Shown here: piece by piece, positions 7,613 through 60,393 of the stretch
Layout of the letters: each line of letters begins with the position of its first letter
How positions within the stretch are numbered: the stretch's first letter is position 1
IMG/VR virus record: IMGVR_UViG_3300034061_005520
Span: 1-64,000 of that record
Length of the DNA stretch: 64,000 nt
DNA from: a virus
Reading direction: 5' to 3' (one strand)
Notes under the pieces: generated by a model
What the model was told of the DNA's origin: nothing
Database searches by the model: none
The model's input: only the letters and a program-made list of their open reading frames with translations
Position numbers and translations under genes: made by a program

Positions 7613-8723
7613 AACTAAAATAAAAACCACTAAAAAACAACAACTAAACCTAATGTGTCCTATAGGCGGGGATAATTTAGGTTCTATTTCTATGAGCATC
7701 TTAAAGGGCTTTAGGGGCATAGATATAGACACCTCTTTATTTCCTATTCTTATAGACGGCAAGTTGTTATTTAATAGCACAGAAGAAGCAGATATTTGCT
7801 CTGGGGCTATAAAATATAGTAGACAATTTAATTATAGAGCACCAGCACTTAAGATATGGCATCCCCATGATCTGGCTACTAGACCAGGAAAAGGTAAGTA
7901 TTACTCTTTAGTGATACCGGACACAGACTATCTAACGGCCTCAGAAGTGCATCACCTAAACTACACAGACGGAATTTTTGTCAGCTCTGATTGGGCAAAA
8001 GATATACTGATTAAGAATCAGATAAAAGTTCCAATACACAAGATATCTCTAGGAGTTGATAGATCTATTTTCACTGTTCCAGAACAAGTAGCTGATAGAT
8101 CTAATAATAACTATATATTCTACTCTACTGGTAAGTGGTCTCTGAGTAATGGTCATGATTTCTTGATTAAGGCATTTAGTCTTGCTTTCAAAAAGACAGA
8201 TAATGTCGAACTTAGATTATTACCAACTAATGATTTTTTAACAGAAGAAGAAACAAATAAGTGGTTGTCTTTGGTAGATAATATACCACATAAGGAAAAA
8301 ATATTTTTATACAATAGATTACAAACCCAATACGATATGGCTGATTTCATCCTATCAGCAGATTGTTTGTTATCCCCACAAAGAGTATGCTCTACCGGCA
8401 CAAGCATATCTGAGGCTATGGTTATGAACAAGCCTGTAATAGCTACACAGTGCGGGGTTGTTGCTGAGTATCCTGAAAGTGAACACCTTTATAGGGCCAA
8501 TATAAGATCTCAAGAAAAAGCATACGATAACAGAATACTATATGGGGAGAGTAATTGGGCAAAGCTGGACCAGTCGGTGCTAGACGAAACTATTGATTAT
8601 ATGAGACACGTTTATAAAAATGAAATTAGGTCTAATCCATCCGGAGTAGAAAAAATGACCAATAGAACGTGGCATAATACCTGTTTAGATATTCTACGGA
8701 TAACCCATAAAAATAAAAAATAA
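7605..8723 (+). CDS. Glycosyltransferase, GT4-like (GT-B fold)
   Basis: The 372-residue product overlaps guaC by eight bases. It has a central ISLGVDRSIF motif, a STGKWSLSNGHDFLIKAF segment (the N-part of the GT-B C-terminal domain) and a later SADCLLSPQRVCSTGTSISEAMVMNKPVIATQCG stretch, which corresponds to the donor-binding E-x7-E-like region of group 1 transferases. It probably transfers a sugar to host polysaccharide, a virion protein or DNA; the substrate cannot be told. The Thr/Ser-rich repeat proteins of this genome are possible acceptors, which is inference only. Confidence 0.75.
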   Translation: MSKTKIKTTKKQQLNLMCPIGGDNLGSISMSILKGFRGIDIDTSLFPILIDGKLLFNSTEEADICSGAIKYSRQFNYRAPALKIWHPHDLATRPGKGKYYSLVIPDTDYLTASEVHHLNYTDGIFVSSDWAKDILIKNQIKVPIHKISLGVDRSIFTVPEQVADRSNNNYIFYSTGKWSLSNGHDFLIKAFSLAFKKTDNVELRLLPTNDFLTEEETNKWLSLVDNIPHKEKIFLYNRLQTQYDMADFILSADCLLSPQRVCSTGTSISEAMVMNKPVIATQCGVVAEYPESEHLYRANIRSQEKAYDNRILYGESNWAKLDQSVLDETIDYMRHVYKNEIRSNPSGVEKMTNRTWHNTCLDILRITHKNKK

Positions 8724-33010: not shown

Positions 33011-33739
33011 TTGAGAAAAAACAATAAAGGGTCCAAGAAGAAGTCTAAGGTCATAGACTTAACAAATGAAATAAACAGTAATGGATATGCTTATAGAAAC
33101 AGACTGAAACCAAGAACAGAAAATCAAAGAGACTACATTAGGAACATAGCGGAAAATACCATAACCTTTTGTCAGGGCCTTGCTGGTTCTGGTAAAACAC
33201 ATATCGCTATAGGTATGGCTATAGAGTACCTATTAGATGAAAAAGTCAAAAAGATTATTATTACCAGACCAGTAATAGAAGCAGGAGAAAAGATTGGATA
33301 TCTTCCCGGAACAGCAGAAGAAAAACTGCACCCCTATCTATTACCCATTATAGACGAGATAAACCACTTCATATCATCTGCACAATATGCTTCACTAAGA
33401 CTTAATAATAAGATAGAGGTGGTGCCTCTTGGTCTTATGAGAGGACGTAACTTCCATAACTCTTTTATCGTAGCGGATGAGTGTCAGAACGCATCATACG
33501 ATCAACTGAAAATGCTCTTGACTAGAACCGGACAAGAGAGTAAAATGGTATTGACTGGCGACGTTGGACAATCAGATTTAAGCAGACATCTTCAAGGTGG
33601 GTTTATTGATCTGATTAGAACTCTTGATGGTTTAGAAGGAATCGGCGTTTCTCAACTGGAAGCCAGTGATATCGTGAGAAACCCAATTATAGCAAAGATT
33701 TTGGGACGCTTAGAATCTTATGAAAATAGAAAACAGTAA
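33011..33739 (+). CDS. phoH: PhoH-like P-loop ATPase
   Basis: The 242-residue product has Walker A GLAGSGKTH, then TRPVIEAGEKIGYLPGTAEE, PLGLMRGRNF, Walker B FIVADECQNAS, and LTGDVGQSDL, the full PhoH signature. The family is an ATPase/RNA helicase-like group very common in phages and of uncertain role in infection. The start is TTG 33011 after AAAGGAC, because no ATG occurs before the Walker A motif. It overlaps the HNH gene by 20 bases. Confidence 0.95.
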   Translation: MRKNNKGSKKKSKVIDLTNEINSNGYAYRNRLKPRTENQRDYIRNIAENTITFCQGLAGSGKTHIAIGMAIEYLLDEKVKKIIITRPVIEAGEKIGYLPGTAEEKLHPYLLPIIDEINHFISSAQYASLRLNNKIEVVPLGLMRGRNFHNSFIVADECQNASYDQLKMLLTRTGQESKMVLTGDVGQSDLSRHLQGGFIDLIRTLDGLEGIGVSQLEASDIVRNPIIAKILGRLESYENRKQ

Positions 33740-34301
33740 ATGTTTAATTCTTAATGCAGATTATTCGGCTTTGGGTATTATTGGGTGGAAAAAAGCTTTA
33801 ATATGGTCGATGCAAAACGAAGCGGATGAAAAGCCGAGGGTGGAGATTATAGATTTCTATAAAAATGATTTTATTCAGGGTGTTAATAATAAAAAATACC
33901 CTATCCCAGCGGTTGTAAAAACTTCTAAATATTTTAGGATTCATGATCAAAGGGTTAATTTTTCTCGTAAGAATTTATTTATACGAGATAATTATAGCTG
34001 TCAATATTGTGGGATTAGACAAGAGCTTAATAAGCTAACCTATGATCATGTTATACCCAAATCCTCATGGAAAGATAGGTCGGGGTCTCCGACTAATTGG
34101 ACCAACATAGTAACCGCGTGTGTTGAGTGCAATAGGAAAAAGGGAAATAGAACGCCAAAACAAGCTAATATGCCACTACATAATCTCCCAATAGCACCAA
34201 AGAAGAGTTCCAAATACTTGCCTATCACACACTTCCTGTTTAAGATAAGGAAAGAATTGCCAGAAGAGTGGTCTGCCTATCTACCGGAATCATACTTATA
34301 A
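33720..34301 (+). CDS. HNH endonuclease
   Basis: The 193-residue product has NYSCQYCG, then LTYDHVIPKS and VTACVECNRKKGNRTP. This is a Cys4-zinc-bound HNH nuclease (the catalytic His is in DHV, the second H/N in the NIVTAC region). The N-terminal part resembles the conserved domain preceding HNH in many phage and bacterial HNH proteins. It may act in DNA packaging, degradation of host DNA or homing. It is coupled to phoH and to the FmdB-like gene. Confidence 0.9.
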   Translation: MKIENSKCLILNADYSALGIIGWKKALIWSMQNEADEKPRVEIIDFYKNDFIQGVNNKKYPIPAVVKTSKYFRIHDQRVNFSRKNLFIRDNYSCQYCGIRQELNKLTYDHVIPKSSWKDRSGSPTNWTNIVTACVECNRKKGNRTPKQANMPLHNLPIAPKKSSKYLPITHFLFKIRKELPEEWSAYLPESYL

Positions 34302-40651: not shown

Positions 40652-41231
40652 GATTATAGCGTTTTCTGGTAGAAAACAATCTGGTAAGAGTACCGCTGGC
40701 GAATTTATTAGCTCTTTTATTCAAGCCAGCGGTATTGAGACATCCCATAAAATCTATAGCTTTGCTGACCCTCTTAAGCAAGATATTTGTATGAATATTT
40801 TGGGTATGAGCCACTCTCAATGCTATGGTTCAGATGACGATAAGAATACCATGACAGACTTGGAATGGAACGGGGAGAAGCTAACCGCCAGAAGGGCTAT
40901 GGAGGTTATTGGCACAAATATATTTAGGCAGATAAAGAGACAGGTTTGGGTTGAGGCCACTATCAATAAAATTCTAAGGGAGAATCTGGACTTAGCCATT
41001 ATTGTTGACTGTAGGTTTCCTAATGAGGTTGACGCTATACTAGATATTAAGGGACATGTGATTAGATTAGACCTAGACCCTTTTCATTCGGATTCGGATA
41101 GTGAAAAAGCATTAGATCCAGAATACTATGACTGGAATAGATTCAGTTGCGTTATAAACAATAGCGCCATGACTGCCGAAGGTAAAAACCACGAGATTTT
41201 AAAGTTTATAAGGGCAAAGAATCTCCTATGA
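40644..41231 (+). CDS. Deoxynucleoside monophosphate kinase (T4 gp1-like)
   Basis: The 195-residue product has P-loop FSGRKQSGKSTAGEF, then SFADPLKQDI, ARRAMEVIGTNIFRQ and IIVDCRFPNEV, the standard features of phage dNMP kinases. It phosphorylates dNMPs (in T4: dGMP, dTMP and hydroxymethyl-dCMP) to diphosphates. It is coupled to the primase gene by an eight-base overlap, linking precursor supply to replication. Confidence 0.85.
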   Translation: MTKIIAFSGRKQSGKSTAGEFISSFIQASGIETSHKIYSFADPLKQDICMNILGMSHSQCYGSDDDKNTMTDLEWNGEKLTARRAMEVIGTNIFRQIKRQVWVEATINKILRENLDLAIIVDCRFPNEVDAILDIKGHVIRLDLDPFHSDSDSEKALDPEYYDWNRFSCVINNSAMTAEGKNHEILKFIRAKNLL

Positions 41232-42271
41232 TTATAACGTATCTAAGGTCTTCTAGTTATGGTACTCATTCTATGTGTGAGCACCAGTATTTTCTTGAAT
41301 ATGTACTGGGATATAGATCTCCATCCAATAAAAAGGCTGATAAGGGCACAATTTTCCACAAGGTGATGGAAATCTTGGCCTATATTAAGCTTACTCAGCA
41401 AAACAATGAGAAGTCATTTGTGGATGACATTGTGGGAGAGGTTAAAGTAGATAAATATAATCTTAATACTCTTATAGAAAAGGTTTATAATTATTATACT
41501 AGTCGATTTACTCATCACGAATGGGATATCAAAGACTACAAAGACTGCCACGCATGGGTTCACAAGGCTCTAGCATACAACGAGGGCATGTTTGATCCAA
41601 GAAACAGTGATATTCTACAACCAGAGCAACATTTTGATATTGAGATAATCAAGCCTTGGTCAAAATATAAGTTTGATACTCCAGAAGGTGTGCTAGAAGG
41701 ACACCTTGCTATCAAGGGTACTATAGACTTAATTACCAAGGTGAACGATAACACTATAGAAATTGTGGACTATAAAACTGGTCGTAGACTAGACTGGGCG
41801 ACTGGGCAGGAGAAGACTCTGGAAAAACTACAAAACGATCCACAGTTAAGAATATACCACTATGCCATTAGTCATTTATATCCAAAGATGGATCATTGTA
41901 TGGTGTCTATATATTTCGTAAATGACGGCGGCGCCTTTTCTGTGTGTTTCGATAAGTCAGACCTTGCCCAAACCGAAAATATGCTAAGGCAAAAGTTCGA
42001 AGTTATAAAGAATAGTCAAAGACCAAAACTAAATAAAACATGGAAATGCAATAAGCTATGTCATTTTGGCAAAAACACATTTGAGAACTCTAATATACTG
42101 CCTATTCTCGAATATAGAGACGGGCAGGTTTGTGGTAAAGATAAAACAATGACCAAGTGTGAACAGGTTAAACACGATATCGAACTCAAGGGCATGAAGA
42201 ACGTTGTTGACGAATACACTGTCCCTGGGTATACTGTTGGAAAATACAAGGCGCCTGGAAGTGCAGAATGA
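41228..42271 (+). CDS. PD-(D/E)XK exonuclease, RecB/Cas4-like
   Basis: The 347-residue product has TYLRSSSYGTHSMCEHQYFLEY with a leading Cys, KGTIFHKVMEIL, and the active site GTIDLITKV followed by EIVDYKTG, as in RecB/Cas4 nucleases. C-terminal CNKLCHFG and later Cys residues, together with the N-terminal Cys, could hold an iron-sulphur cluster as in Cas4/AddB. It is probably a DNA end-processing nuclease for recombination. It overlaps the polymerase gene by four bases. No CRISPR genes are nearby. Confidence 0.85.
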   Translation: MIITYLRSSSYGTHSMCEHQYFLEYVLGYRSPSNKKADKGTIFHKVMEILAYIKLTQQNNEKSFVDDIVGEVKVDKYNLNTLIEKVYNYYTSRFTHHEWDIKDYKDCHAWVHKALAYNEGMFDPRNSDILQPEQHFDIEIIKPWSKYKFDTPEGVLEGHLAIKGTIDLITKVNDNTIEIVDYKTGRRLDWATGQEKTLEKLQNDPQLRIYHYAISHLYPKMDHCMVSIYFVNDGGAFSVCFDKSDLAQTENMLRQKFEVIKNSQRPKLNKTWKCNKLCHFGKNTFENSNILPILEYRDGQVCGKDKTMTKCEQVKHDIELKGMKNVVDEYTVPGYTVGKYKAPGSAE

Positions 42272-44148
42272 AAAAATATGTTCCTCTCCATTGCCATTCA
42301 ATGTATTCACTATTGGATGGCTTGAGTAAGCCTAAAAATATAGCTAAAAGATGTATAGATATTGGTGCTACGTCTTGTGCATTAACAGACCATGGCAATA
42401 TAGCCGGAGCTGTTAAGTTTTATACAGAGATGAAGCAGAATGGTATAAAGCCCTTGTTGGGTTGCGAGATCTATCTATGCGATAAGGATCCCTCCATTCA
42501 AGATCCTTCTAATAGAAACTTGACCCATTTCTTGTTGTTGGCCAAAAACCTCAAGGGGTGGAAAAATTTAATACGTTTGGTATCTGAATCCAACAGACCC
42601 GACTTTTATTATCACAAGCCACGGCTCAATCTGGAGGCTTTGGGAGCCTTTTGTGACGGTAATCTGATTGGTATGTGTGGTCACCTAGGATCTCTATTAG
42701 CCGATAAAATCTTACCAGAGAATAAACCGTCTAAGGATTGGCTATCGGTGGGTACGGAAACTATTGGCAAATTAAAGGGTATTTTTGGTCAAGAAAACCT
42801 GTTTCTAGAATCCCAACTAATGGATGTGCATAATACTCCAATTCAAAAAGATCTGTCGGATATGATTCGTGAACTTGGAAAAAAGACTAACACAAAAGTA
42901 GTCTGCACACCCGACGCTCATTATTGTGAAAAATCTGATGCTGTTGATCAAAGAATCTTGCTTTGTAATAATCTAAAAACAACTCTACCAGATATTAGTC
43001 GTAAGGTTAGTAATAATGAAGAAGTACCAATGTCATGCTTCTTTACCTCCGATAATTTTCATATTTTATCTCAAGAAGAAATAGCAGAGCTTCATACTGA
43101 AGAAGAAATAGAGAACACTAATTTAGTAGCGGATATGTGCGAGGAATATAGTATTCTTAATAATCCTTTGCTGCCACCATTCCCTTGTCCTAACGGACTA
43201 AACCCAGATGAATACTTAAGACATCTTTGTCGTGGTGGATGGAAAGGTAAGATAGCCAATAAGATATCAGAAGATAGTCAGCCTGAGTATGTTGATAGAA
43301 TCAAATACGAACTTGAGGTATTACAGGGGGCTGGGCTTTCCAGTTACTTCTTAATTGTGCAAGATATCGTGAATTATGTTCGTCAAAATGGCTGGCTTCC
43401 CGGTCCCGGACGAGGTTCTGCTGCTGGGTGTTTGGTTTCATACCTTGTGGGCATTACCAGTATAGACCCCATAAAATATAACCTAATGTTTGATCGATTT
43501 TATAATGCTGGTAGAAATTCTAAGGATCATATTTCAATGCCAGATATCGATGTGGACGTACCTATCAATAAGAGAGAAGATATTATTGAGTATATTAAAA
43601 ACCAGTATGGTCAAGACAAGGTATCTCAAATGATTACCTTCAATACTATTAAGGGTAGAGGGGCGTTAAAAGACGTATTGAGAGTTTACGGAAATATCTC
43701 TTTCGAAGAAATGAATAAGATTACTAAGAACATACCAGACGAAGCAAAGATTGCTGACGAACTACAAGAGATGAAAGAAGAGACCGGAGAGTCTTCCATT
43801 ATTAGATGGGCTCTGGAAAACAACCCAGATAAGCTCAGAGAATGGTGTTTCATAGATGAGAAAAACGAACTACAAGGACCTCTTGCTAAAAGGTTCGAAC
43901 AAGCTATAAGATTAGAGGGCACAAAGTCCAATCAGTCTAAACATGCCGCTGGTATCGCTATCAGTTCTCACCCACTAAAAGAATCTTGTCCAATGGTTTA
44001 TGACAGCAAAAACGATCAGCTAATAGCTGGTATGGAAATGCAAGATCTAGAATCTATTGGAATTATCAAGTTTGATATTTTGGGTGTGGCAATGTTGGAT
44101 AAGGTGATGACTATAACAGATCTTCTCAAATCAGGAGTTACAGTATGA
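42268..44148 (+). CDS. dnaE: DNA polymerase III alpha subunit, N-terminal part (PHP plus palm)
   Basis: The 626-residue product starts with a PHP domain (PLHCHSMYSLLDG, ALTDHGNIAG, CTPDAHY) that keeps most metal ligands. The polymerase palm follows: GPGRGSAAGCLVSYLVGI, MPDIDVDV with two catalytic Asp (426 and 428), and IKFDILG with the third (603). The frame then stops 23 residues later, exactly between the palm and the GDTxGVFQLES region found in the next polymerase piece. With the 539-residue C-part it totals 1165 residues, the usual length of a complete DnaE. Confidence 0.92.
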   Translation: MKKYVPLHCHSMYSLLDGLSKPKNIAKRCIDIGATSCALTDHGNIAGAVKFYTEMKQNGIKPLLGCEIYLCDKDPSIQDPSNRNLTHFLLLAKNLKGWKNLIRLVSESNRPDFYYHKPRLNLEALGAFCDGNLIGMCGHLGSLLADKILPENKPSKDWLSVGTETIGKLKGIFGQENLFLESQLMDVHNTPIQKDLSDMIRELGKKTNTKVVCTPDAHYCEKSDAVDQRILLCNNLKTTLPDISRKVSNNEEVPMSCFFTSDNFHILSQEEIAELHTEEEIENTNLVADMCEEYSILNNPLLPPFPCPNGLNPDEYLRHLCRGGWKGKIANKISEDSQPEYVDRIKYELEVLQGAGLSSYFLIVQDIVNYVRQNGWLPGPGRGSAAGCLVSYLVGITSIDPIKYNLMFDRFYNAGRNSKDHISMPDIDVDVPINKREDIIEYIKNQYGQDKVSQMITFNTIKGRGALKDVLRVYGNISFEEMNKITKNIPDEAKIADELQEMKEETGESSIIRWALENNPDKLREWCFIDEKNELQGPLAKRFEQAIRLEGTKSNQSKHAAGIAISSHPLKESCPMVYDSKNDQLIAGMEMQDLESIGIIKFDILGVAMLDKVMTITDLLKSGVTV

Positions 44149-44333
44149 TTACAAAGCAATTTAAAGACCTAGGCGTTGGCGATACTTTTATCTTCAATAA
44201 TGTAGAATATGTTAGGATCGCTGATGAAAAAATTAGTTGTTGCAGAAGTAACAACGCTGCGTTAACCGATGAAACAAAGACAAAAACATTTATTCAGCCA
44301 CTATCGGAAGTACAGGTAAATGATCAACTATAA
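44145..44333 (+). CDS. Small conserved phage protein between polymerase and exonuclease, 62 aa
   Basis: MITKQFKDLGVGDTFIFNNV and then EYVRI with SCCRSNNA is a beta-barrel-like pattern I recall as a common small phage family (KxLxVGDTFxFNG...). It starts by ATGA overlap with the polymerase N-part and overlaps the exonuclease by 14 bases. It may be a tiny accessory factor or simply a passenger. Confidence 0.65.
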   Translation: MITKQFKDLGVGDTFIFNNVEYVRIADEKISCCRSNNAALTDETKTKTFIQPLSEVQVNDQL

Positions 44334-45012
44334 TAAAATTTGCGTATTTGATTTAGAAACAGACGGATCGGATCCTAGGATTTGTAGCCCTGTTCAGATA
44401 GCCGCTGTTATGATTGATCCTATTAAGCTGGAGCTTATCAAGGACTCTGAGTTTAATATAAACATCAAACCAGAGGTTATGGAGAAAGACGATAAGTATG
44501 AGTATACTACAGATATTCTAGATTTTCACGCTAGGGTCAAGGGGTCTTCTAAGGAAAAGGTATATGCCGAATGGCAAACATATCCTAAGCAGGAGCACTC
44601 TTGGAAGATGTTTACCAGTTATCTAGAACAGTATCACACAAGAAGTTCCAAGAAGAGTCAGTTTTCAGCTCCGATAGCCGCTGGGTATAATATAAATAGA
44701 TTTGATCTTCCTATTATCGGTAGACTGAGCGAGAAGTTCGGTAATGTTAATAAAGAAGGACGTACCGATATTTTTTATCCTAGAGACGTAGTAGATATTA
44801 TGAACATGATTTTTTACTGGTTTGAGAACAGTAATGATCTAAAAAACTATACCTTAGACGCGCTAAGAGATTATTTTGGAATATCTAAAGAGGGTGCTCA
44901 CGACGCACTTAAGGACGTAAAGGATAGTGCCGATATACTGATTAGGTTTTTGCGACTTCATAGAAACTTAAGCAAGAAAATCAAATTCCAGGGTGCGTTC
45001 ACAAATGCCTAA
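44320..45012 (+). CDS. dnaQ: DnaQ-like 3'-5' exonuclease (DEDDh)
   Basis: The 230-residue product has VFDLETDGSD (exo I), AGYNINRFDLPII (exo II) and AHDALKDVKDSADIL (exo III with His and Asp), all DEDDh residues present. It is the proofreading subunit counterpart (epsilon). It is encoded between the two polymerase pieces and overlaps the second by eight bases, so the three are co-translated and probably assemble together. Confidence 0.9.
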   Translation: MINYNKICVFDLETDGSDPRICSPVQIAAVMIDPIKLELIKDSEFNINIKPEVMEKDDKYEYTTDILDFHARVKGSSKEKVYAEWQTYPKQEHSWKMFTSYLEQYHTRSSKKSQFSAPIAAGYNINRFDLPIIGRLSEKFGNVNKEGRTDIFYPRDVVDIMNMIFYWFENSNDLKNYTLDALRDYFGISKEGAHDALKDVKDSADILIRFLRLHRNLSKKIKFQGAFTNA

Positions 45013-46624
45013 GACCTTTCAGTATCCTTGTGGCTGTTCTTTCCCCACCACAGAAGACGGCAATATAAGACATATTGATTTTGATCCAACTATAGAAAAT
45101 ATAGATCTAGATTGTCAGAGAACATGGGATCTGATTTCTGATGGGAATACAAAGGGTTGCTTTCAGTTAGAGTCTAGACTTGGTAGGTCTATGGCTAAAA
45201 AGCTAAAACCCACCAATATAGAGCAGCTTTCCGCTTTGATTGCGATTCTCAGACCCGGTTGCTTGGAGGCTATGAGAGACGGCAAAAGTGTGAGTAATCA
45301 TTATATTGATAAAAAAAATGGGCAAGAGTCTGTAGACTATTTTCATCCCGCTCTTGAGCCAATTCTTAAAACCACTTATGGAGAGATGATTTATCAAGAA
45401 CAGGCTATGGAAATTGCCAAGGTTATTGCTGGATTCAATCTCCAAGAAGCGGATATGTTAAGAAAGGCTATTGGTAAGAAAAAGCCAGAAGAAATGGCAA
45501 AGGTTAAAGAAAAGTTTTTAACGGGCAGTAAGGGTCTCGGGATAGTTAATGTGGACGAAGCAGAGCAGATATTCGGATGGATTGAAAAGAGTCAAAGATA
45601 TTCATTTAATAAGTCTCATTCTGTAAGTTATGCTATCAACGCATACTTATCAGCGTATGCCAAGGCGCATTTCCCCAAAATATTCTTTGCTTCATACCTA
45701 CGTTTTGCTAAAGATAAAATAGACCCACAAGCAGAGATCAAAGAATTAACACAGAATGCTAATGAAATGGATATTACGGTATCTGTTCCAGACTTCAGAA
45801 ATCTAAACCAATATTTTATTCTTAATGATAATAAGATCTTTTTTGGACTAACAGACATAAAGGGGGTAGGCCAGTCTGTTTTTAATAAGCTCTTGGAGCT
45901 TAAAGAAAAGAATCTTGATCTAAACAGCACAAGCTGGTTGTACATAGCTATTAATGTGCTTATGAATATTAATTCAACAGCAGCCAAAGCATTAATACAA
46001 AGTGGCGCTTTGTCCTATGTGAAAAAGACCAGAAATAGTATGCTGTTTGAATATGAGCTACTATCAGAACTAACTAAGAAAGAAATAGAGTTTATCAAAG
46101 GTGGTATAGATAAGTATTCTTGTATTGAGCAGGCTTTAAAGGATCTCGTAGCTTTTGGTAAGGCTAATAAGAACCGTAAAGCCATAATCTCTACGGTATT
46201 ATCTACCGCTATGAACCCACCAAGATCCCTAGTAGATAGTCCCGAATGGCTATCTGATGCGGAATATGCGGCCCTTGGATGCTCTATAACTTGTTCCAAG
46301 GTTGATATGTATGATATTAGTATGACTAATGCTACATGTAAAGACTTTAAGAATGGTATAGTTAGAGAAAATATTATTGTTGGTGGTGAAATAGACTATA
46401 TAAACGTTACAAAAACAAAAACAGGGAAAACCCCAGGATTAGAGATGGCGTTTGTAACGCTGGTTGACAGTACTGGATCTATGGATTCTGTAGTATTCTT
46501 TCCTGATCAATACAGAGAATACAGAAATGTATTATTTCAGGGAAATGTAGTAATAGTCAAGGGGTCTAGGTCGAGGTCGGGAGATGCCTTTGTGGTAGAA
46601 AAGTGTTATATTCCCAGGTCTTGA
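45005..46624 (+). CDS. dnaE: DNA polymerase III alpha subunit, C-terminal part (fingers, tandem HhH, OB)
   Basis: The 539-residue product starts at ATG 45005; a GTG 12 bases upstream is possible. After a short CGCSF-containing extension it resumes the DnaE sequence exactly where the N-part stops: TWDLISDGNTKGCFQLES, then LRPGCLEAM, EQAMEIAKVIAGF, RKAIGKKKPEEM and RYSFNKSHSVSYA. It then continues through DIKGVGQSVFNKL (HhH) to a C-terminal OB fold with GGEIDYINVTKTKTG. The intein site used in cyanobacterial DnaE (within FNKSHS) is uninterrupted. It lacks the catalytic Asp set and so must act with the N-part. Confidence 0.9.
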   Translation: MPKTFQYPCGCSFPTTEDGNIRHIDFDPTIENIDLDCQRTWDLISDGNTKGCFQLESRLGRSMAKKLKPTNIEQLSALIAILRPGCLEAMRDGKSVSNHYIDKKNGQESVDYFHPALEPILKTTYGEMIYQEQAMEIAKVIAGFNLQEADMLRKAIGKKKPEEMAKVKEKFLTGSKGLGIVNVDEAEQIFGWIEKSQRYSFNKSHSVSYAINAYLSAYAKAHFPKIFFASYLRFAKDKIDPQAEIKELTQNANEMDITVSVPDFRNLNQYFILNDNKIFFGLTDIKGVGQSVFNKLLELKEKNLDLNSTSWLYIAINVLMNINSTAAKALIQSGALSYVKKTRNSMLFEYELLSELTKKEIEFIKGGIDKYSCIEQALKDLVAFGKANKNRKAIISTVLSTAMNPPRSLVDSPEWLSDAEYAALGCSITCSKVDMYDISMTNATCKDFKNGIVRENIIVGGEIDYINVTKTKTGKTPGLEMAFVTLVDSTGSMDSVVFFPDQYREYRNVLFQGNVVIVKGSRSRSGDAFVVEKCYIPRS

Positions 46625-51895: not shown

Positions 51896-54800
51896 TTAAC
51901 TATTCTCTTTGTATGGGTTGTCGCTAGTTAAGAACTTTATAGCAACTCCTCTAACAGTACAGTCTTCATCTGGTGTTGTAAGATTTAAGGTATTCTCTAC
52001 AGTTATTGATGATCCTATATCAATGTTGTTCTCTGTGGTTATTCCAGATAAGCCCTCCACTTTAATAGTGGTTCCATCCCACTGACCGTATATTGTTGGA
52101 GTAGACACTTCTTCATACTTATCTAATACTATATATTCACTCTTATAAGTATCATAATAAGCATAAACCATATCTCCAGCAGCATGTGTTTTACCGATTC
52201 TATCTACGACCTTGATCATAGGGGTGCTGCCACTAAGGTCTGATGTTGATGACGGTGGAGCGGTTGGTGGGGCCGCTGTTGTTTGTGGTGGAGATGTTGG
52301 TACTGGAGGCTGTGTGGGTGGAGGAGCCTTAGTGGTTGTTGTTGGTCTTCTCGTGGTAGTAGTGGTCGTTGTTGTGGTCGTTGTTGTGGTCGTTGTTGTG
52401 GTTGGGTTGCCTGTGGTTGTGGTAGCATATAAGCAGTCATAGTTGCAACCAAATTCATTCTCATATGGTCCGCTCGGATCTACTACGCACTGATTAGTAT
52501 TTTGATCACATCTCCATCGAATAGGAGCCTGTGTGGTACCCGGACCACTGGTTGTACCTTCGCCCGGACCACTGGTTGTACCTTCGCCCGGACCACTGGT
52601 TGTACCTTCGCCCGGACCACTGGTAGTGCCTTCGCCCGGACCACTAGTAGTGCCTTCGCCCGGACCACTAGTAGTGCCTTCGCCCGGACCACTGGTAGTG
52701 CCTTCGCCCGGACCACTGGTAGTGCCACCTCCGCTGTCGCAAGAGGTAGTATTCTCCATAATCCTAGACCAAACTCTGTCAAAAATCTGGTCGATACATT
52801 CGTCGCTAAGATTACATCCTGGTGGACTTGTGGGTGGACTTGTGGGTGGGCTGGTGGTACCGCAACAAGCTTGATAACAAGCATCATATCCAGAATAGGC
52901 TTGTCCACTACCGTTTTGAGAGCAATAACAATTGCCTTGTCCGTCGTTAATGCAGTAGTATGATGGGGGTGGTGTTGTACTTCCCCCTGGCGTAGTTCCC
53001 GCTGGCGTAGTTCCCGCTGGCGTAGTTCCCGCTGGCGTAGTTCCCGCTGGCGTAGTTCCCGCTGGCGTAGTTCCCGCTGGCGTAGTTCCTGCTGGCGTAG
53101 TTGTTGGAGGTTCACAATTTGCTTGGTCGCAAGTTTTACCTAAATAGTGAACACCTCCTTCACTTTCGCAGGTATTTTTTGGAATGTTCTCGTCACACCC
53201 ATAATAATCATCTCTATCCGTACTGTAGTAACAACAAGCTCCCGGTTTTCTGCATATAGAGTCTATATCATCGCAAGTTTTTTCTAGATAAAACGTTCCA
53301 CCGTAATATGTTTCGCAGTCTTGCTTTTCTACTCCATCTTCGCATATATCCGAATAACAACACGCCCCAAACTGTTTACACGGATTTCCGGCACAGGAGT
53401 CGTAAGGACCGCCAACTGGTGGTATTGGGCCTCTTATGGGGTCTAGATATTCTCCATTGGGTAAGTTAGACTGCTTACACTCGCTGCTTTGACCGCCAAT
53501 AGTATAGCAATAATATTTCTTTGAGCATAGTCCTGCATTAACTAAAATCCACTTATATTCTTTCTCTCCTCCTGTACTTTCGCAACTCTTCCCCTCTTGA
53601 TCGGCGGCTGCTACTAACTCTCCATTTTCATCATATAAATTCTTGTAGTATTTATTTCCACCCTTCTCATTTATAAGTATTGCTCTGCCCTCTCCAAAAG
53701 CTGATACTTTTTTAACAATTTTGGCCACCACAATTTTATATGCTTGTGGACTAACCCACATGCCGCGCTCTCGATCAAAACGCAAGTCAACAGGAGCAAC
53801 TGGCCATGTTTTGGGTTTGTTTAACCAGTCTTTTAAAAACTTGTCTTTGAGTTCCGTATCTTTAAACGTACCATTGCCAGCAGCAGCGTCAGTGTCCGCT
53901 TCGTTGGGTACTGGCTTACCATCAAGATCATACCCCCAAGCATGTAGTACCAACGGACCTCTTAATCCTAAAAATCTATAGTCCTCAGAATATCTATTAT
54001 TAGCATTTTGAGCCAAAGCATTCATTAACATCGTCTCATCCGGCGGAGTATCACCCCTACCTAAAAGGTCTATGGCGTGACCGGCGCCATCTCCATCGTG
54101 ATGATGATTACTTCCTGAAACCTTATTAGTAAGAGGATCTAAATATTTTTGATTAATTCGTAGATTATATTGATCCATAGTTATTGGATCGTTACAATTT
54201 CCCTCTTTATCAAAAGGCGGTTGTGGTGATAATGGAGAACTATTAGTTTTATTAATTTGTACAAAATTATTATTTTGATAATTAGCATATCTAGGTAGGC
54301 CACAACCATTATCCCCAGCTTTACATACTGGTCCAAATAAACCATCCAAACTCATAAATGCTTTTTTGGCGTAGTTAAATCTTAATTCTAGTACTGATTT
54401 TGGCAGAGTATCTATACCTACAACAGTTCTTTGACTATCTCCCGACGGCTGTTCGTACCAATCCTTCATATCAGCAATCATGCATCTATGAAGGGTTTGT
54501 CCGTCTGCCACATTTTTATCTGCCGGTTTCCTTGTTCCTCCACCCACGGTTTTTAGTTTTCTATTAATGTTATGAGACATTATAGCTTGGTTTCTTAAAA
54601 ACTGGAGCTGCTTTTGTCTGTTTTTAGCGGCATTCTTCATTTGCTCCACAGCAGATTTTGCTAAGTCACCAAACTTTGGAGTAAATGTTTGAAAGGTATA
54701 GGTTGTTGTAATACCAGAAGATCCAAAATTAACATTAATACCACTAAGATTAGGATTGCTATTATAATCATTCCCTAGAAATGGTAGGTCTGGCAAACCA

Positions 54801-56980
54801 ACGAGGGTGACAGAGCCACTCTCTGCCTGATTTAATCCCATCTGGGATAGTCGTGCTAATAAATTTCCAGCAGTATTCATAGCATTAGAGCCACCAAAAA
54901 CCCATGGGGCAAGGTCTGTATTTTGTTCCGCACTACAACCGCCGGCGTTTTGACCAATATTCGGATTAGAGTATGGACCATATGTGCTAATATTGCTTCT
55001 CATCGGAATTGCGGCAATGATTGGCGTAACAGCTCCGGGTGTTAGCTGGTATTTATTAGTAGAAGAAACATCTAACCCAGATACAGCCTCATTCATACTA
55101 GACATATTCAAGCTATCACATATATACATAGCCTGATTTGTAACTCCCGAGCCACCACTGGTTAAACCAGAGCTTTTTGCTATTGCGGATGCCGCGGCAA
55201 GAAATGCTGCTGGAAACTGTGCTTCTTGAGAATTAAGGGTCGTTAAACAGGCGTCACTAAACTTTATTAATACGTATGTTTGATTATTAATCTTATAGAT
55301 TTTTTCTCCAACCTCTGCCTTAACGTATGCCTCTGACCCATTATCATTTACTAATACCTCATCAGCAGAAATATTATCTAGATTTAATTTACGGCCAGAG
55401 CCAACATTACCGGTAGTAAATTTAGCAAACGCTCCTACTCGACCGTCATCTTGTCTAAAAAAACCGAGGTAGGGATCGGATACGCCCATAACAGTTCCAC
55501 CAGTTTCCACCCAACCACCATCATTTGTTGGTTCCGCACTGTAAAATTTCTCTGTGCTTAAACAAGTTACTGATGAGGCAGAATTTCCGGAGGTCATTAT
55601 GTCTTGTGTATTACCAACACAAATATTTTCACTTAATGTACACAGAAACTGCTTACCGTAATATGTTTGCCTAAGAGACTCTATATAACCATGTATTTTT
55701 TTAGCATCTTCATTAATATATTCTTGTGTCTTTCTGGATGTATTTTGCGAAGGGTTTCCTGCTGTTACGTCTTGTACAGAACTTATTTTGGCACTCGCTT
55801 TTATTCCATTTCCAGCTGCAAAAAAAGCATTTGCAAAATTACCAGTCATACCGTTATCTTCAAACCAAGCTTTAGCTGTCAAAGCATATGAACTTAAATC
55901 AGCATTGCCCGCTAGTACAGCGTCTACCCATAATTCATAGTTTGCTCTCAAGTCGAACTCATTGATATAGAGATCTTCTCCGCCAGCAAAAACTCCTGGG
56001 TTTCTAAGGGATGCGGCGAGAGGTTTTGTATATACCAAGACATTAAAGCCACATGATCCGCCTCCGGGGACCGCTGTTACTGGCTCACATCTAGTATTTT
56101 CTCCAAAATAAGGAAGAAAATTAGATGCTGTGGCCATATAGTGTCTTTTTTCACCAAAAATAATAGAATTTTGTTTTTCAATTCTTAATTCTCGACCAAA
56201 AGACCTATCGGTAATATAGCCAGATATACCTTGTATATAAGAGAAAGATGATGGGTTTTGTCTAAGATCTACTAGTCCAATTTTTATAACGCTGTTAGAG
56301 TTTAAGTAGACATAAAAATCATAGCCAGTAGCGTCACAAACATCGGTAATCAATTGAAGAAGAGTCATCGACGGACCATTGGCCCTATAGGAAGGAGGAA
56401 AGCCAGACGGGAGATCGCTAAGGTCTATACTCAAAGGAGATCCCGTTGGAGTTCGTATAGTCAAATTAGATTGTTGAAGAGCATTGATAATAGCCTGATA
56501 TGATATGCCTCGATCTCCGGATATCCCAGATGTTCCGAAGGTTGAACATTGTCCGCTAGTAATAGCCGATTCGGATTCATAGAAATTATAAACATTAAAT
56601 ACATTGGGTATGTTATTAAGTGCTGTACCAGCATATGTGTCTATGATTAGTGTGCAGTTCTCAAGTATTCTTCTTGGGTCTGTTAATGTTACGCTATAAG
56701 TATTTCCTGACGTGCCGATATTTCTGGTCCAGTTTGTTATGATTCCACAAAAAGAAAAGTTCATTCCTCCAGGATTTTCTGGAAAACATACTGGTGATCC
56801 TATGAGACTATCAGGAAAACCTCCGGCAAACGTCTGACCAGAATCACAATCCTCAACAAGTTCTACAGTTAATGAACTTTCTTGGCTTCCAACGCCAAGA
56901 TTACCATTAAATGATACTACTGTAGCATCTAAAAATGTGATTGGGTTAGTTAATCCTATATTCTGATATTCTGTTGTCAT
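51896..56980 (-). CDS. Giant baseplate/tail protein with Cys modules and Thr-rich repeats
   Basis: The product is 1694 residues. The N-terminal 450 residues (TDPRRILENCTLIIDTYAG, LLQLITDVCDATGYDFYVYL) look like a tail hub/baseplate protein. The middle block (GPLVLHAWGYDLDGKPVPNE, NKPKTWPVAPVDLRFDRERG) is a recurrent phage tail sequence. Then come two GACC Cys modules, TTPAG x8, a CYCSQNG-type module, GEGTTSGP repeats, a WRCDQNT module, a long run of Thr, Pro-rich linkers and a C-terminal beta domain. It is probably a baseplate or tail-tip protein whose C-terminal half bears exchangeable host-contact modules. It is the last gene of the minus-strand operon. Confidence 0.75.
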   Translation of the reverse strand: MTTEYQNIGLTNPITFLDATVVSFNGNLGVGSQESSLTVELVEDCDSGQTFAGGFPDSLIGSPVCFPENPGGMNFSFCGIITNWTRNIGTSGNTYSVTLTDPRRILENCTLIIDTYAGTALNNIPNVFNVYNFYESESAITSGQCSTFGTSGISGDRGISYQAIINALQQSNLTIRTPTGSPLSIDLSDLPSGFPPSYRANGPSMTLLQLITDVCDATGYDFYVYLNSNSVIKIGLVDLRQNPSSFSYIQGISGYITDRSFGRELRIEKQNSIIFGEKRHYMATASNFLPYFGENTRCEPVTAVPGGGSCGFNVLVYTKPLAASLRNPGVFAGGEDLYINEFDLRANYELWVDAVLAGNADLSSYALTAKAWFEDNGMTGNFANAFFAAGNGIKASAKISSVQDVTAGNPSQNTSRKTQEYINEDAKKIHGYIESLRQTYYGKQFLCTLSENICVGNTQDIMTSGNSASSVTCLSTEKFYSAEPTNDGGWVETGGTVMGVSDPYLGFFRQDDGRVGAFAKFTTGNVGSGRKLNLDNISADEVLVNDNGSEAYVKAEVGEKIYKINNQTYVLIKFSDACLTTLNSQEAQFPAAFLAAASAIAKSSGLTSGGSGVTNQAMYICDSLNMSSMNEAVSGLDVSSTNKYQLTPGAVTPIIAAIPMRSNISTYGPYSNPNIGQNAGGCSAEQNTDLAPWVFGGSNAMNTAGNLLARLSQMGLNQAESGSVTLVGLPDLPFLGNDYNSNPNLSGINVNFGSSGITTTYTFQTFTPKFGDLAKSAVEQMKNAAKNRQKQLQFLRNQAIMSHNINRKLKTVGGGTRKPADKNVADGQTLHRCMIADMKDWYEQPSGDSQRTVVGIDTLPKSVLELRFNYAKKAFMSLDGLFGPVCKAGDNGCGLPRYANYQNNNFVQINKTNSSPLSPQPPFDKEGNCNDPITMDQYNLRINQKYLDPLTNKVSGSNHHHDGDGAGHAIDLLGRGDTPPDETMLMNALAQNANNRYSEDYRFLGLRGPLVLHAWGYDLDGKPVPNEADTDAAAGNGTFKDTELKDKFLKDWLNKPKTWPVAPVDLRFDRERGMWVSPQAYKIVVAKIVKKVSAFGEGRAILINEKGGNKYYKNLYDENGELVAAADQEGKSCESTGGEKEYKWILVNAGLCSKKYYCYTIGGQSSECKQSNLPNGEYLDPIRGPIPPVGGPYDSCAGNPCKQFGACCYSDICEDGVEKQDCETYYGGTFYLEKTCDDIDSICRKPGACCYYSTDRDDYYGCDENIPKNTCESEGGVHYLGKTCDQANCEPPTTTPAGTTPAGTTPAGTTPAGTTPAGTTPAGTTPAGTTPGGSTTPPPSYYCINDGQGNCYCSQNGSGQAYSGYDACYQACCGTTSPPTSPPTSPPGCNLSDECIDQIFDRVWSRIMENTTSCDSGGGTTSGPGEGTTSGPGEGTTSGPGEGTTSGPGEGTTSGPGEGTTSGPGEGTTSGPGEGTTSGPGTTQAPIRWRCDQNTNQCVVDPSGPYENEFGCNYDCLYATTTTGNPTTTTTTTTTTTTTTTTTRRPTTTTKAPPPTQPPVPTSPPQTTAAPPTAPPSSTSDLSGSTPMIKVVDRIGKTHAAGDMVYAYYDTYKSEYIVLDKYEEVSTPTIYGQWDGTTIKVEGLSGITTENNIDIGSSITVENTLNLTTPDEDCTVRGVAIKFLTSDNPYKENS
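52355..52430 (-). repeat. Poly-threonine coding tract
   Basis: A run of gtggtcgttgtt-type units (read on the minus strand as ACA/ACC codons) encodes about 16 Thr in a row within the giant tail protein. Mixed ACA/ACC codons limit simple slippage. Confidence 0.8.
52539..52725 (-). repeat. 24-bp coding repeat, eight copies (GEGTTSGP)
   Basis: Eight near-identical 24-bp units on the minus strand encode GEGTTSGP. Copies differ by single synonymous changes in two classes (ggttgta and ggtagtg or agtagtg), showing stepwise duplication. Confidence 0.9.
52985..53102 (-). repeat. 15-bp coding repeat, eight copies (TTPAG)
   Basis: Tandem 15-bp units, nearly identical, encode TTPAG (the last TTPGG). They join two Cys modules in the giant tail protein. 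Confidence 0.9.
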
Positions 56981-56994
56981 AATAAGTCCTTAAA

Positions 56995-58707
56995 CTAACA
57001 TCCTGAAGCACACATATATCCCAAGCTAATGCTATAAGAACCATCAATGGGATTGTCCGTTCTTTGTTTTTGTGTTACTATATAGTTGGTCATATTTGGT
57101 AATGTTATCCCAGCAGGAATACTAAAGCCAGCTGATGCTATTTGTCCAGTTATAGAATTGCCAGTTAAACAACAACTCCTACCACCTAGTCTTCCTTCTA
57201 TACTAATATTGATCTTTTTGGCTGTCTTTGTTTTCATATCTTGTATTACTAATACACCCGTTCCGGGAATAGGTAGTTCTGCTAATACTGGTGAAGAATC
57301 TTCGACAGCAATGCTTATACTTGCTGCTGACCCAGATTGTCCACATATAATATTACTAGAATATTCAACACTATAATTAATAGTACCTTCGTGGTAGTTA
57401 TGTGTCAAGCTAAAAGAAGAAGGTTCTAAACTAGCGCTACCGCATCCAGCTAATTGTTGAGCGCTAATTCCTAGGTTGGTGGCTGTGATTCCTAGTTTTG
57501 TTTTAACATTTTCTATTAGGTCTTCCCCGGAGATAATCTTGTTCAGTGCGGTAAGAGCCTGTGCGTATTTTGTGGAAGAAGATGAGCTAATTAAAATAGA
57601 TCCATTTTGGGGTAGTCTAAACCCTGTTCCTGCACTTCTAATGATACCGCCTTCAAGAAGACCTTCTATTGTTCCTTGTATGCTAATTGTTGTTATTTTT
57701 CTAGTATCGTTTTGAACATTAGTAGCTCTATTAAAAGTATGCTTACTAGCTGGATGGTTAACGTCTGTATTATTATTTTTCTTAATTATAGCATTATAAG
57801 TAACAGAAAAAGTACCATCAGATTCGGAAGTGTTACATGATAATGTCTCGTTGTAAACGCCGTAGGCAGAACCCAGGTTTTGTAAAGAGCCAGATGTTGC
57901 GGAGCCTATTGCACTTAAAGACGACGATGCTGAGCACGCTGTATTTGCTGTTAATCCCAATGTGGAAGATAGCATACCTACAACCTTACGATATAGCCTG
58001 TCTTGTGCAAAGTTCTTGGCCTGTTCCCATGCGGGGATTAGCAGATCATCGACGTAGTGGTTTTTTCCTGTTGCAGATATGGTATAGGTTACGGTCATGC
58101 TAGAATTTTCAGTATCCATCACTCCATAATTTGTGTTTATAACTCTATTGTAAAGATTATCGTCTGTTGCAATAGACCAGTTGTCTGTAAAAGCTTTTAT
58201 CTTATATTTATCTATATCAATTATACCATCAGACTTGCTTGAGGGGTCTAGGTATGAGTCTGAGCAAGCTATGGAATGGAGAGAGGAGCCGTTAATGAGT
58301 TCTACTTCATTAAATTCGATAGTTGCTGAGTATTCCGCATATCCCATCCAATTATTAGGAGATTCATTAAAAGATAAAGATCTAAGAGTACCACCCCTAC
58401 ATTTAATAGTCTCCGTATTATCGTCTTCTCTGATAGATAAAGTACTACCATTACGACTTAAAATTTTCTGCACCATGGCTATATTGTCTGTTACCAAACC
58501 CAAGCTGTTAATAGAAGAGTTGGAAGTATTGGTCTCTGTTGTTTGTCTATAGGCTGTTGCATAGCCCCTAATTGATACGTTGTGTGTATATCCGATAATA
58601 ATATCCCCACTATAATACGGTTCTGTACTAATACTAATTTGTGGGGCTGGTGAAAGCCTATATGCAGAAGATTGGCTGTCCTCTGGTCCATAATATGTTT
58701 TAGTCAT
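56995..58707 (-). CDS. Tail protein, paralogue 1
   Basis: The product is 570 residues, beta-rich. It shares with the following upstream gene the pattern YYGxxxSxSxRLxPAPQISIST, YNRVI/YNNYG, ISATGKNHY/SATGKNFY, PAWEQAKNFxQDR, YNETLSC/YNETITC, ISIAVEDSSPVxAE and a closing DGSYSIS/DGSYNIS. The two genes are therefore tandem duplicates. Position after the tape measure and before the baseplate protein implies tail-tip or baseplate components. Only 14 bases separate it from the giant gene. Confidence 0.72.
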   Translation of the reverse strand: MTKTYYGPEDSQSSAYRLSPAPQISISTEPYYSGDIIIGYTHNVSIRGYATAYRQTTETNTSNSSINSLGLVTDNIAMVQKILSRNGSTLSIREDDNTETIKCRGGTLRSLSFNESPNNWMGYAEYSATIEFNEVELINGSSLHSIACSDSYLDPSSKSDGIIDIDKYKIKAFTDNWSIATDDNLYNRVINTNYGVMDTENSSMTVTYTISATGKNHYVDDLLIPAWEQAKNFAQDRLYRKVVGMLSSTLGLTANTACSASSSLSAIGSATSGSLQNLGSAYGVYNETLSCNTSESDGTFSVTYNAIIKKNNNTDVNHPASKHTFNRATNVQNDTRKITTISIQGTIEGLLEGGIIRSAGTGFRLPQNGSILISSSSSTKYAQALTALNKIISGEDLIENVKTKLGITATNLGISAQQLAGCGSASLEPSSFSLTHNYHEGTINYSVEYSSNIICGQSGSAASISIAVEDSSPVLAELPIPGTGVLVIQDMKTKTAKKINISIEGRLGGRSCCLTGNSITGQIASAGFSIPAGITLPNMTNYIVTQKQRTDNPIDGSYSISLGYMCASGC

Positions 58708-58719
58708 AATAATCCTCTT

Positions 58720-60393
58720 TTAATTATCTCTTTTAATATATGATCTACTAATATTATATGAGCCATCTATACTATTAATCGTCTCTTGATTTTGCACAAG
58801 AATCATGCCACCTATTTCTTTATCGGGGATATCTGCTGGTAGACCCAATCCCGAGCATACATTAGAAACATTAGGACAACACGATATAAGGCTCTCAGAA
58901 AAACCCTCTATGTTTACATTAACCCTTTTGGGGGTGTACGGTCCAAGTTTTTGAATAATTGGCCCGTTTTGTCTTCCCGGAATAACGAATTCCGCAACCA
59001 TAGGAGTGCTATCCTCAACCGATATACTTATGCTTCTATACGATGAGTTGTTTAAGCAGGCTCTACTTGAGTTGTATTCTGCAGAATATGATATGGTTCC
59101 AGTGGTGTAGTCGTGGGTGGAGCTAAAAGAAGAAGCTCTTGGAGAAGATATACAGCTACCAGAAATTAATAGTTCGGCAGCATTAATATTTAGTAGTGTC
59201 TTCATTGATAAAGAAAGATCTTGTCCGTCTCCAACCAAATTGTAAGCTGATAGGGCTGTATTATACTTGGTAGTATTATTTTCTTGCGCTATAAATAGCT
59301 GGCCATTTTGTGGAAATTCTATAATATTAGGAGTATTAATTAGTCCACCAGGAACTAATCCAGTAATACTGCCTTGTACAGAAAGTGATACGTTGGTCGT
59401 TCTTCCGTCTTTTTGTATAGATTTGCTCTTATTAAATGTGTGTATACAATCTATAGCTAGTGGATCTGTTGAATTATATTTAAGAATAGATTTATATGTT
59501 GCACTGAATGTTCCTTCCGCTTCACCAGCCTCACAAGTAATAGTTTCGTTGTATATTTTATGTGTTGTGGAACTAATGCCGTCTATACCACCAGGGGAAG
59601 TAATATCATGGAGTTGAGACAAGGTTTTTGAGGAAGTACAGCCATCACCTGCAGAATCTCTATTGAGTATATTCCCTATCAAACCTTTAACCTGATCATG
59701 TACTCTGTCTTGTACGAAGTTTTTTGCCTGCTCCCAGGCCGGTAAAAGTTTTTGCTGATCGTTATAAAAGTTTTTTCCGGTGGCCGATACAGAGTATTCT
59801 ATTTCTATGTATTGGTTTTGAAAATTTCCATAATTATTATATGCAGCTTCTGATATATTAAATGACCAATTATCATTAAAAGACTTTACCTTATATTTGA
59901 CTAGATCTATGAGATTGGGGGCGGTACCGTTGGAGTCTACGCTCAAAGTATTGCAATTAATAGTATTACTAATATTACATCCGCTAATAATAATTTCACT
60001 AAACTCTATTTCCACCTTATATGGAGCATAGTTAACCCAGTTATTTGCGGACTCTTCAAAAGATAAGGAGCGTATGGTGCCGCCCCTACACTCCATAATA
60101 ACACTATCATTTTTATCGGTTACATATAAAGAGCCGCCGTTTAAACTAAAAATTTCCCTTACTTTGTGAATAGCATCAGACATATCCTTTAACCCATACT
60201 CATTAGCTCCACCGGTAGTTAGATCTAATGCTGTAGCATAACCATTAAGGCTAACAATATAAGAATATCCAGCAACGGTATCATTAGCATAAACCATCTC
60301 GGTACTAAAAGATACTTGAGGAGCAGGAACTAACCTGTCCGATGCTGATCCGTTGGTTCCGTAATATACTTTGCTTCCTGGGTCGTAACTCAT
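58720..60393 (-). CDS. Tail protein, paralogue 2
   Basis: The product is 557 residues, homologous to its downstream neighbour (see shared blocks there), with KVYYGTNGSASDRLVPAPQV at its start and VEIEFSEIIISG in the N-terminal part. It overlaps the tape-measure stop by four bases. It has fewer Cys and a different C-terminus (DGSYNISRSYIKRDN). A heteromeric ring or stacked tail-tip assembly is conceivable. Confidence 0.72.
   Translation of the reverse strand: MSYDPGSKVYYGTNGSASDRLVPAPQVSFSTEMVYANDTVAGYSYIVSLNGYATALDLTTGGANEYGLKDMSDAIHKVREIFSLNGGSLYVTDKNDSVIMECRGGTIRSLSFEESANNWVNYAPYKVEIEFSEIIISGCNISNTINCNTLSVDSNGTAPNLIDLVKYKVKSFNDNWSFNISEAAYNNYGNFQNQYIEIEYSVSATGKNFYNDQQKLLPAWEQAKNFVQDRVHDQVKGLIGNILNRDSAGDGCTSSKTLSQLHDITSPGGIDGISSTTHKIYNETITCEAGEAEGTFSATYKSILKYNSTDPLAIDCIHTFNKSKSIQKDGRTTNVSLSVQGSITGLVPGGLINTPNIIEFPQNGQLFIAQENNTTKYNTALSAYNLVGDGQDLSLSMKTLLNINAAELLISGSCISSPRASSFSSTHDYTTGTISYSAEYNSSRACLNNSSYRSISISVEDSTPMVAEFVIPGRQNGPIIQKLGPYTPKRVNVNIEGFSESLISCCPNVSNVCSGLGLPADIPDKEIGGMILVQNQETINSIDGSYNISRSYIKRDN

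What the first reader, a model, noticed from the sequence alone, without database searches (positions are those of the whole stretch)
42268..46624. DNA polymerase III alpha split into two genes around its own exonuclease
The sequence directly shows a complete DnaE broken between the palm and fingers: the N-part ends 23 residues after the third catalytic Asp (IKFDILG), and the C-part resumes at GNTKGCFQLES. Between them lie a 62-residue protein and a DEDDh exonuclease, all four frames overlapping by 4-14 bases. Combined length equals a normal DnaE. The break is not at the known cyanobacterial split-intein site and no intein residues are seen, so the pieces should assemble non-covalently, perhaps held by the exonuclease.
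Basis: partly seen in the sequence, partly recalled or inferred. Interest (0 to 1): 0.78.

Follow-up and report, generated by a model that had tools for sequence, protein, structure and literature searches.

The report
Phage replicase split into two genes
A large group of uncultured phages makes its DNA-copying enzyme as two separate proteins, with the gene of a probable proofreading enzyme lodged in the break; the break is old, not a sequencing error, and should let biologists test how a broken essential gene becomes permanent.

Summary
The split is real. The window (part of a 152,676-base IMG/VR virus record) encodes a C-family (DnaE) replicase as two genes: N-part (PHP, palm, thumb; 626 aa) and C-part (fingers, helix-hairpin-helix, OB; 539 aa from ATG 45005). 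The break maps to E. coli DnaE residues about 578-585, the palm/fingers boundary. Between them lie an SH3-like 62-aa protein and a DEDDh exonuclease. It is the only family A, B or C polymerase found in the record.

It is not an error. Of 162 distinct related phage sequences, all 149 holding N, exonuclease and C are split in that order; none is fused. The order persists to about 48% identity. C lies in all three frames relative to N, and no intein or intron lies at the break, so two chains that assemble non-covalently is the best reading (inferred).

The exonuclease is probably not needed for the break: sister phage L237 and Rossellomorea phage phiT1 break at the same place around unrelated ORFs. 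Other phages break DnaE elsewhere, some around homing endonucleases. Likely history: a mobile-gene insertion, later occupied by the exonuclease.

Split phage DnaE is already published (PMC7824862), so this is a new variant of a known kind. Assembly and activity are untested.

The parts
42268..44148 (+). DnaE-N: PHP, palm and thumb of DNA polymerase III alpha (626 aa); holds the GPGRGSAAG nucleotide-binding motif, PDIDVD and KFDILG catalytic Asp motifs
   Evidence: conserved over 67 relatives
44145..44333 (+). 62-aa SH3-like small protein S (conserved F-G-F-CC-N-V pattern), 4-base overlap with DnaE-N
   Evidence: AlphaFold2 pLDDT 92.9, five-strand barrel; weak PHROG 2183 match
44320..45012 (+). 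DEDDh 3'-5' exonuclease (230 aa), likely proofreading (epsilon-like) subunit; motifs FDLETDG, GYNINRFD, GAHDALKD
   Evidence: RNase_T Pfam; PHROG 192 'DNA polymerase exonuclease subunit'; motifs conserved in 55 relatives; only RNase_T match in the record
45005..46624 (+).
41228..42271 (+). PD-(D/E)XK exonuclease, upstream operon neighbour (4-base overlap with DnaE-N); a like gene also precedes DnaE-N in sister L237
46693..47070 (+). single-strand DNA-binding protein directly downstream of DnaE-C; an SSB-like ORF follows DnaE-C in relatives whose downstream ORF was read (L053, L066, L184, L187, L271)
   Evidence: Pfam SSB

Best explanation
This is an old, fixed, two-gene replicative DNA polymerase of the DnaE (C family) type. 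Two chains, N (PHP-palm-thumb) and C (fingers-HhH-OB), are translated next to each other from one tightly overlapping operon and assemble non-covalently at the palm/fingers boundary into a working alpha subunit (inferred). The exonuclease encoded in the break most likely supplies proofreading, and the gene overlaps give translational coupling and matched amounts (inferred). The break probably began as the insertion of a mobile gene into dnaE at a loop that tolerates it; the present occupants, exonuclease and SH3-like protein, came later or replaced it (inferred). Shown: the split, its site, its wide conservation, purifying selection in the pairs tested, and the absence of an intein or detectable intron at the break. 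Not shown: assembly and activity of the two chains, and the insertion origin.
For: Domains and order. Break maps to E. coli DnaE about 578-585, with only a few residues missing. 149/149 distinct relatives with N, X and C are split in the same order, 0 fused; N-part identity down to about 48%. Purifying selection in three pairs: omega 0.03-0.05 for N, 0.01-0.04 for exonuclease, 0.03-0.06 for C. C lies in frames 1/0/2 relative to N in 22/13/10 relatives, and all three stop codons occur at the N-part end, so no conserved frameshift or recoding joins them. No Rfam intron match. C-part folds confidently alone and matches solved DnaE. No family A or B polymerase and no second fingers domain in the held record. 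Insertion origin: sister L237 has the same break with a different 226-aa ORF; Bacillus phage KLEB27-3 is broken around an HNH endonuclease and Lactobacillus phage 8014-B2 around a homing endonuclease; inteins in relatives' DnaE. Precedent: split NrdA of phage Aeh1 is fully functional and split gp43A/gp43B co-purify (PMC2988022).
Against: The L237 226-aa ORF has no family, PDB or phage match, so calling it a mobile nuclease rests on a motif seen by eye. The host DnaE could do replication with the phage pieces used otherwise. The record may be incomplete, so absence of other polymerases holds only for the held sequence.
Confidence: 0.8

Rival explanations
1. The exonuclease (with or without the SH3-like protein) is the physical bridge that holds N and C together; the break exists because the subunit is assembled around it.
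For: In all 149 relatives tested the exonuclease lies in the break, nearly always directly before C, even at about 48% identity, while other cargo changes. By established knowledge, E. coli epsilon binds the PHP domain of alpha, here on the N chain.
Against: phiT1 and sister L237 have the same break without it; L237 is a 49,842-base record that may be a fragment, so the exonuclease could lie outside it. Adjacency may only reflect co-expression.
Confidence: 0.15
2. The halves are joined covalently after translation or at RNA level (trans-splicing split intein, intron, programmed frameshift).
For: Inteins and split inteins do occur in relatives' C-parts at other sites.
Against: No intein halves at the N-part end or C-part start, genes overlap by 4-14 bases so there is no room for an intron, no Rfam match, and relative frame varies between relatives.
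Confidence: 0.03
3. Sequencing, assembly or strain artefact, or a decaying pseudogene.
For: The window itself is a single metagenomic record.
Against: Same arrangement in 149 distinct sequences from many samples, purifying selection in three pairs, two MAG contigs as well.
Confidence: 0.01
4. The phage pieces are not the main replicase: N (PHP nuclease) and C serve separate repair or host-takeover roles and the host replicase copies the genome.
For: No phage beta clamp detected and no C-terminal tau-binding region detected, so host factors must be borrowed or dispensed with.
Against: All three catalytic Asp, the nucleotide-binding motif and the fingers motifs are conserved in separate genes; the region also holds DnaB-like helicase, Toprim primase, SSB and UvsX-like recombinase genes.
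Confidence: 0.08

Closest known systems
Rossellomorea phage phiT1 gp20/gp19/gp18 (PV767480)
   Same: DnaE broken at the same palm/fingers site into two ORFs, with one small ORF between
   Different: Only a 49-aa unrelated ORF between, no exonuclease; about 33%/30% identity to N/C; in the second tree it falls among fused DnaEs (100/98), so probably an independent break, though an AU test on the first tree did not reject one origin (p 0.09)
Split Pol III alpha of group 2.2 jumbo phages (PMC7824862, section 3.4.1)
   Same: C-family catalytic module in two proteins thought to reconstitute an enzyme
   Different: Minimal module without PHP and other domains, distantly located genes, accompanied by a family B polymerase; here nearly full-length, overlapping operon, only polymerase found
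Split DnaE of other named phages: Rhodococcus ChewyVIII, Mycobacterium Send513/Onyinye, Microbacterium Hager/Karate, Bacillus Jayan and KLEB27-3, Lactobacillus 8014-B2
   Same: Adjacent DnaE fragments, usually with an ORF between
   Different: Break elsewhere (after PHP, near the catalytic motifs, inside the fingers); occupants are homing endonucleases or unrelated small ORFs, not the exonuclease
Split gene 43 (gp43A/gp43B) and split nrdA of T4-like phages (PMC2988022)
   Same: Essential replication enzyme made as two chains that reassemble; homing-endonuclease insertion as cause or suspect
   Different: Family B polymerase / RNR; described there for a few Aeromonas phages, whereas this break is fixed across a large clade
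Cyanobacterial split-intein DnaE
   Same: DnaE in two genes
   Different: Rejoined covalently by protein splicing; break in the fingers at the NKSH region (own knowledge). Here no intein at the break
PolC of Gram-positive bacteria
   Same: DEDDh exonuclease physically tied to a C-family polymerase
   Different: Exonuclease is fused inside one chain at the PHP domain (own knowledge); here separate genes at palm/fingers

Membership tests
DnaE / DNA polymerase III alpha (C family) | PHP, palm with GS motif and three catalytic Asp, thumb, fingers | tested here: met
   spread over two genes
DnaE / DNA polymerase III alpha (C family) | single polypeptide | tested here: not met
   149/149 relatives split; hence 'two-gene DnaE', not ordinary DnaE
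DnaE / DNA polymerase III alpha (C family) | polymerase activity of the assembled chains | not testable with these tools
   needs protein
Split-intein DnaE | N- and C-intein halves at the break | tested here: not met
   N ends 23 residues after KFD; C starts with CGC hairpin then fingers; no intein-like sequence at either end; Pfam finds inteins only at other sites in relatives
DEDDh exonuclease, epsilon-like proofreader | DxE, D and HxxxxD motifs | tested here: met
   FDLETDG, NINRFD, HDALKD; RNase_T and PHROG 192
DEDDh exonuclease, epsilon-like proofreader | binds alpha and proofreads | not testable with these tools
   inferred from position and family
Homing-endonuclease-split ('fractured') gene | endonuclease gene in the break | tested here: not met
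   exonuclease and SH3-like ORF in the window; 226-aa orphan in L237
Split Pol III alpha of jumbo phages (Iyer 2021, PMC7824862) | minimal module, distant genes, family B polymerase present | tested here: not met
   PHP present, adjacent genes, no family B match

The most novel reading that the evidence does not exclude
An obligate two-chain C-family replicase, fixed in a large, diverse clade of phages, whose proofreading exonuclease gene has been captured inside the break and is retained there throughout the clade, making N, exonuclease and C one co-translated core. It would be the first ancient, intein-free break of a near full-length DnaE at the palm/fingers boundary to serve as the phage's only polymerase.
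Probability: 0.6. Interest if true: 0.7.

Novelty: new variant of a known kind. Interest (0 to 1): 0.6.

Why it matters
Splits of essential phage enzymes are usually seen as fresh damage by homing endonucleases in single phages. Here one is old, shared by more than a hundred distinct phage sequences and under purifying selection, with later genes, above all the likely proofreader, stacked into the gap. It gives a natural two-part replicase cut at the palm/fingers joint for studying alpha assembly and for building split polymerases, and a lineage series (fused, broken with orphan ORF, broken with exonuclease) that lets the fate of a broken essential gene be followed. phiT1 suggests that the same joint broke twice.

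Tried and rejected
Fused relatives: looked for in the productive viral-contig scans and one genome scan; none in the clade. Frameshift/recoding: relative frames vary and the N frame usually stops soon after its stop; runs past it are at most 64 codons, mostly into S read in N's frame (a 612-codon case, L063, was a wrong start pick of mine). Intron: Rfam empty. S as a bridge specific to DnaE: lost in L187, replaced by unrelated small ORFs in L322/L325, and its fold is shared by many small phage proteins. S against PDB by sequence: nothing; by fold only EF-P/eIF5A and Tudor SH3-like barrels at E about 0.1. phiT1 relatives in IMG/VR: none found. Relatives of L237: only itself. Exonuclease elsewhere in the L237 record: no match (the record may be a fragment). 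Bacteroides phage DAC16 exonuclease relative: sits beside a terminase and a ligase, not in dnaE. 'Pseudomonas phage Y1' DnaE is fused and of bacterial look; probably a mislabelled record. Named phages near the window by DNA: none. First coordinates for S overran stops and were corrected.

Full report
What is there. Pfam assigns PHP and DNA_pol3_alpha to the first, RNase_T to the third, and fingers, HHH_6 and OB to the fourth; the second has no Pfam family. PHROG 405 (phage DNA polymerase) is covered at positions 41-615 by the N-part and 622-1069 by the C-part, so the two genes tile one polymerase. Aligned to solved DnaE, the N-part ends at E. coli residue about 578 and the C-part resumes at about 585: only a short palm/fingers linker is missing. 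The likely C start is ATG 45005, from the junction spacing of relatives. Homology ends at about E. coli 1055; the C-terminal tau-binding region is not detected. No family A or B polymerase, no second fingers domain and no beta clamp were found in the 152,676-base record.

Is it real. IMG/VR scans gave relatives from 100% to about 48% N-part identity. Among 162 distinct N sequences, 149 also hold the exonuclease and C in the stretch fetched: all 149 have the order N, exonuclease, C with an in-frame stop before C, and none is fused. S was detected by tblastn in 136 of the 149; at least some of the rest hold a diverged S. Junctions are tight: in 46 complete loci S-X is mostly -14 to -1 and X-C mostly -8 or -4, the usual sign of translational coupling (inference). 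In three pairs of relatives omega is 0.03-0.05 for N, 0.01-0.04 for the exonuclease, 0.03-0.06 for C and 0.02-0.17 for S.

Could the halves be joined. C lies in all three frames relative to N (22/13/10 relatives); N-part stops are TAA 49, TGA 29, TAG 1 and the frame beyond is short, at most 64 codons. Overlaps leave no room for an intron, Rfam shows none, and neither end carries an intein half. Two chains that assemble non-covalently is therefore the best reading. This is inferred; assembly was not tested. The C-part alone gives a confident model (pLDDT 83) whose best PDB matches are DnaE structures. Published precedent for such reassembly is split NrdA of Aeh1, fully functional, and split gp43A/gp43B, which co-purify (PMC2988022).

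The occupants. The exonuclease keeps DEDDh motifs in 55 relatives and is the only RNase_T match in the record; PHROG calls its family a DNA polymerase exonuclease subunit. A proofreading role is likely but untested. The 62-aa protein has an invariant F15, C32, C33, V56 and a confident small barrel (pLDDT 92.9) resembling SH3-like barrels of EF-P/eIF5A and many unnamed phage proteins. L187 lacks it. A jumbo-phage survey also noted a small SH3-fold gene beside a polymerase gene (PMC7824862), a parallel only. The break collects other cargo: UDG, GNAT and MazG-like genes in L321, an RCC1-repeat protein in L314, two ORFs in L053, DUF1501/DUF1559/ThyX in L062.

History. Fused phage DnaEs surround the clade. 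Sister L237 groups with it at 100/100 and has the same break around a 226-aa orphan ORF; its sequence shows a possible D-x(n)-DLK nuclease motif by eye, but no search supports it. So the break most simply predates, or does not depend on, the exonuclease; support for the exonuclease-bearing group excluding L237 is only 84/52, and L237 may be a fragment. phiT1 has the same break; the second tree puts it among fused DnaEs (100/98), implying a second origin, while an AU test on the first tree did not reject one origin (p 0.09). KLEB27-3 and Lactobacillus 8014-B2 have homing-type endonucleases in their own DnaE breaks, and relatives of the window carry inteins and split inteins elsewhere in DnaE. 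A mobile-gene origin of the break is thus plausible, not shown.

What is known. Split phage Pol III alpha was reported for jumbo phages (PMC7824862), in a minimal, distantly encoded form beside a family B enzyme. Several named phages show adjacent split DnaE genes at other sites in their annotation. Nine literature searches of an open-access library found no paper on this arrangement; subscription papers are not held. The finding is therefore a new variant of a known kind: a nearly full-length, operon-encoded, intein-free split at the palm/fingers joint, fixed over a large clade, with the likely proofreader inside.

Noticed in passing
L002 8726-11092: A near-identical phage carries an intein with an HNH domain inside DnaE-C at ILRPG^C; the window has the empty allele. 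Inteins in DnaE-C also in L268 and L318 (Pfam Intein_splicing).
   Followed up: yes
L066 8678-11691; L320 6580-9242; L062 11967-13777: DnaE-C is broken a second time at the FNK^S/C NKSH site by split-intein halves around free-standing LAGLIDADG (L066, L320) or DUF559/homing (L062) endonucleases: the 'fractured gene' layout, next to the cyanobacterial DnaE intein site.
   Followed up: partly
L237 4980-8228 and 8918-10897: Sister phage DnaE-N carries a LAGLIDADG intein at GRG^C and DnaE-C a mini-intein at FNK^C, besides the gene break: three interruptions in one polymerase.
   Followed up: yes
window 45005-45125: DnaE-C of the clade has a new N-terminal hairpin with C-x-C and a later invariant Cys (C9, C11, C37), absent in L237, L325 and phiT1; possible metal site. 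Predicted as beta strands.
   Followed up: partly
L062 8725-11080: DUF1501 and DUF1559 genes, typical of Planctomycetes (own knowledge), sit between exonuclease and DnaE-C; the host of that phage may be a planctomycete. MAG contigs with the operon are labelled Flavobacteriales (L099) and Chitinophagia (L100), so the host is unsettled.
   Followed up: partly
L321 5913-7281; L314 5935-8439; L053 8769-9784: Other genes inserted in the DnaE break: UDG, GNAT, MazG-like (L321); RCC1-repeat 834-aa protein (L314); two unknown ORFs (L053).
   Followed up: partly
window 6476-7612 and 7605-8723: IMP dehydrogenase/GMP reductase-like gene next to a glycosyltransferase in the phage genome.
   Followed up: no
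window 33720-34301: HNH endonuclease gene directly after a PhoH-like gene.
   Followed up: no
window 51896-63836, minus strand: Four very large ORFs (1694, 570, 557, 1148 aa) with no Pfam or PHROG match; possibly structural genes of a poorly known phage group.
   Followed up: no
OQ572403.1 (L084): Record named Pseudomonas phage Y1 carries a fused, bacterial-looking DnaE; possibly mislabelled or contaminated.
   Followed up: no
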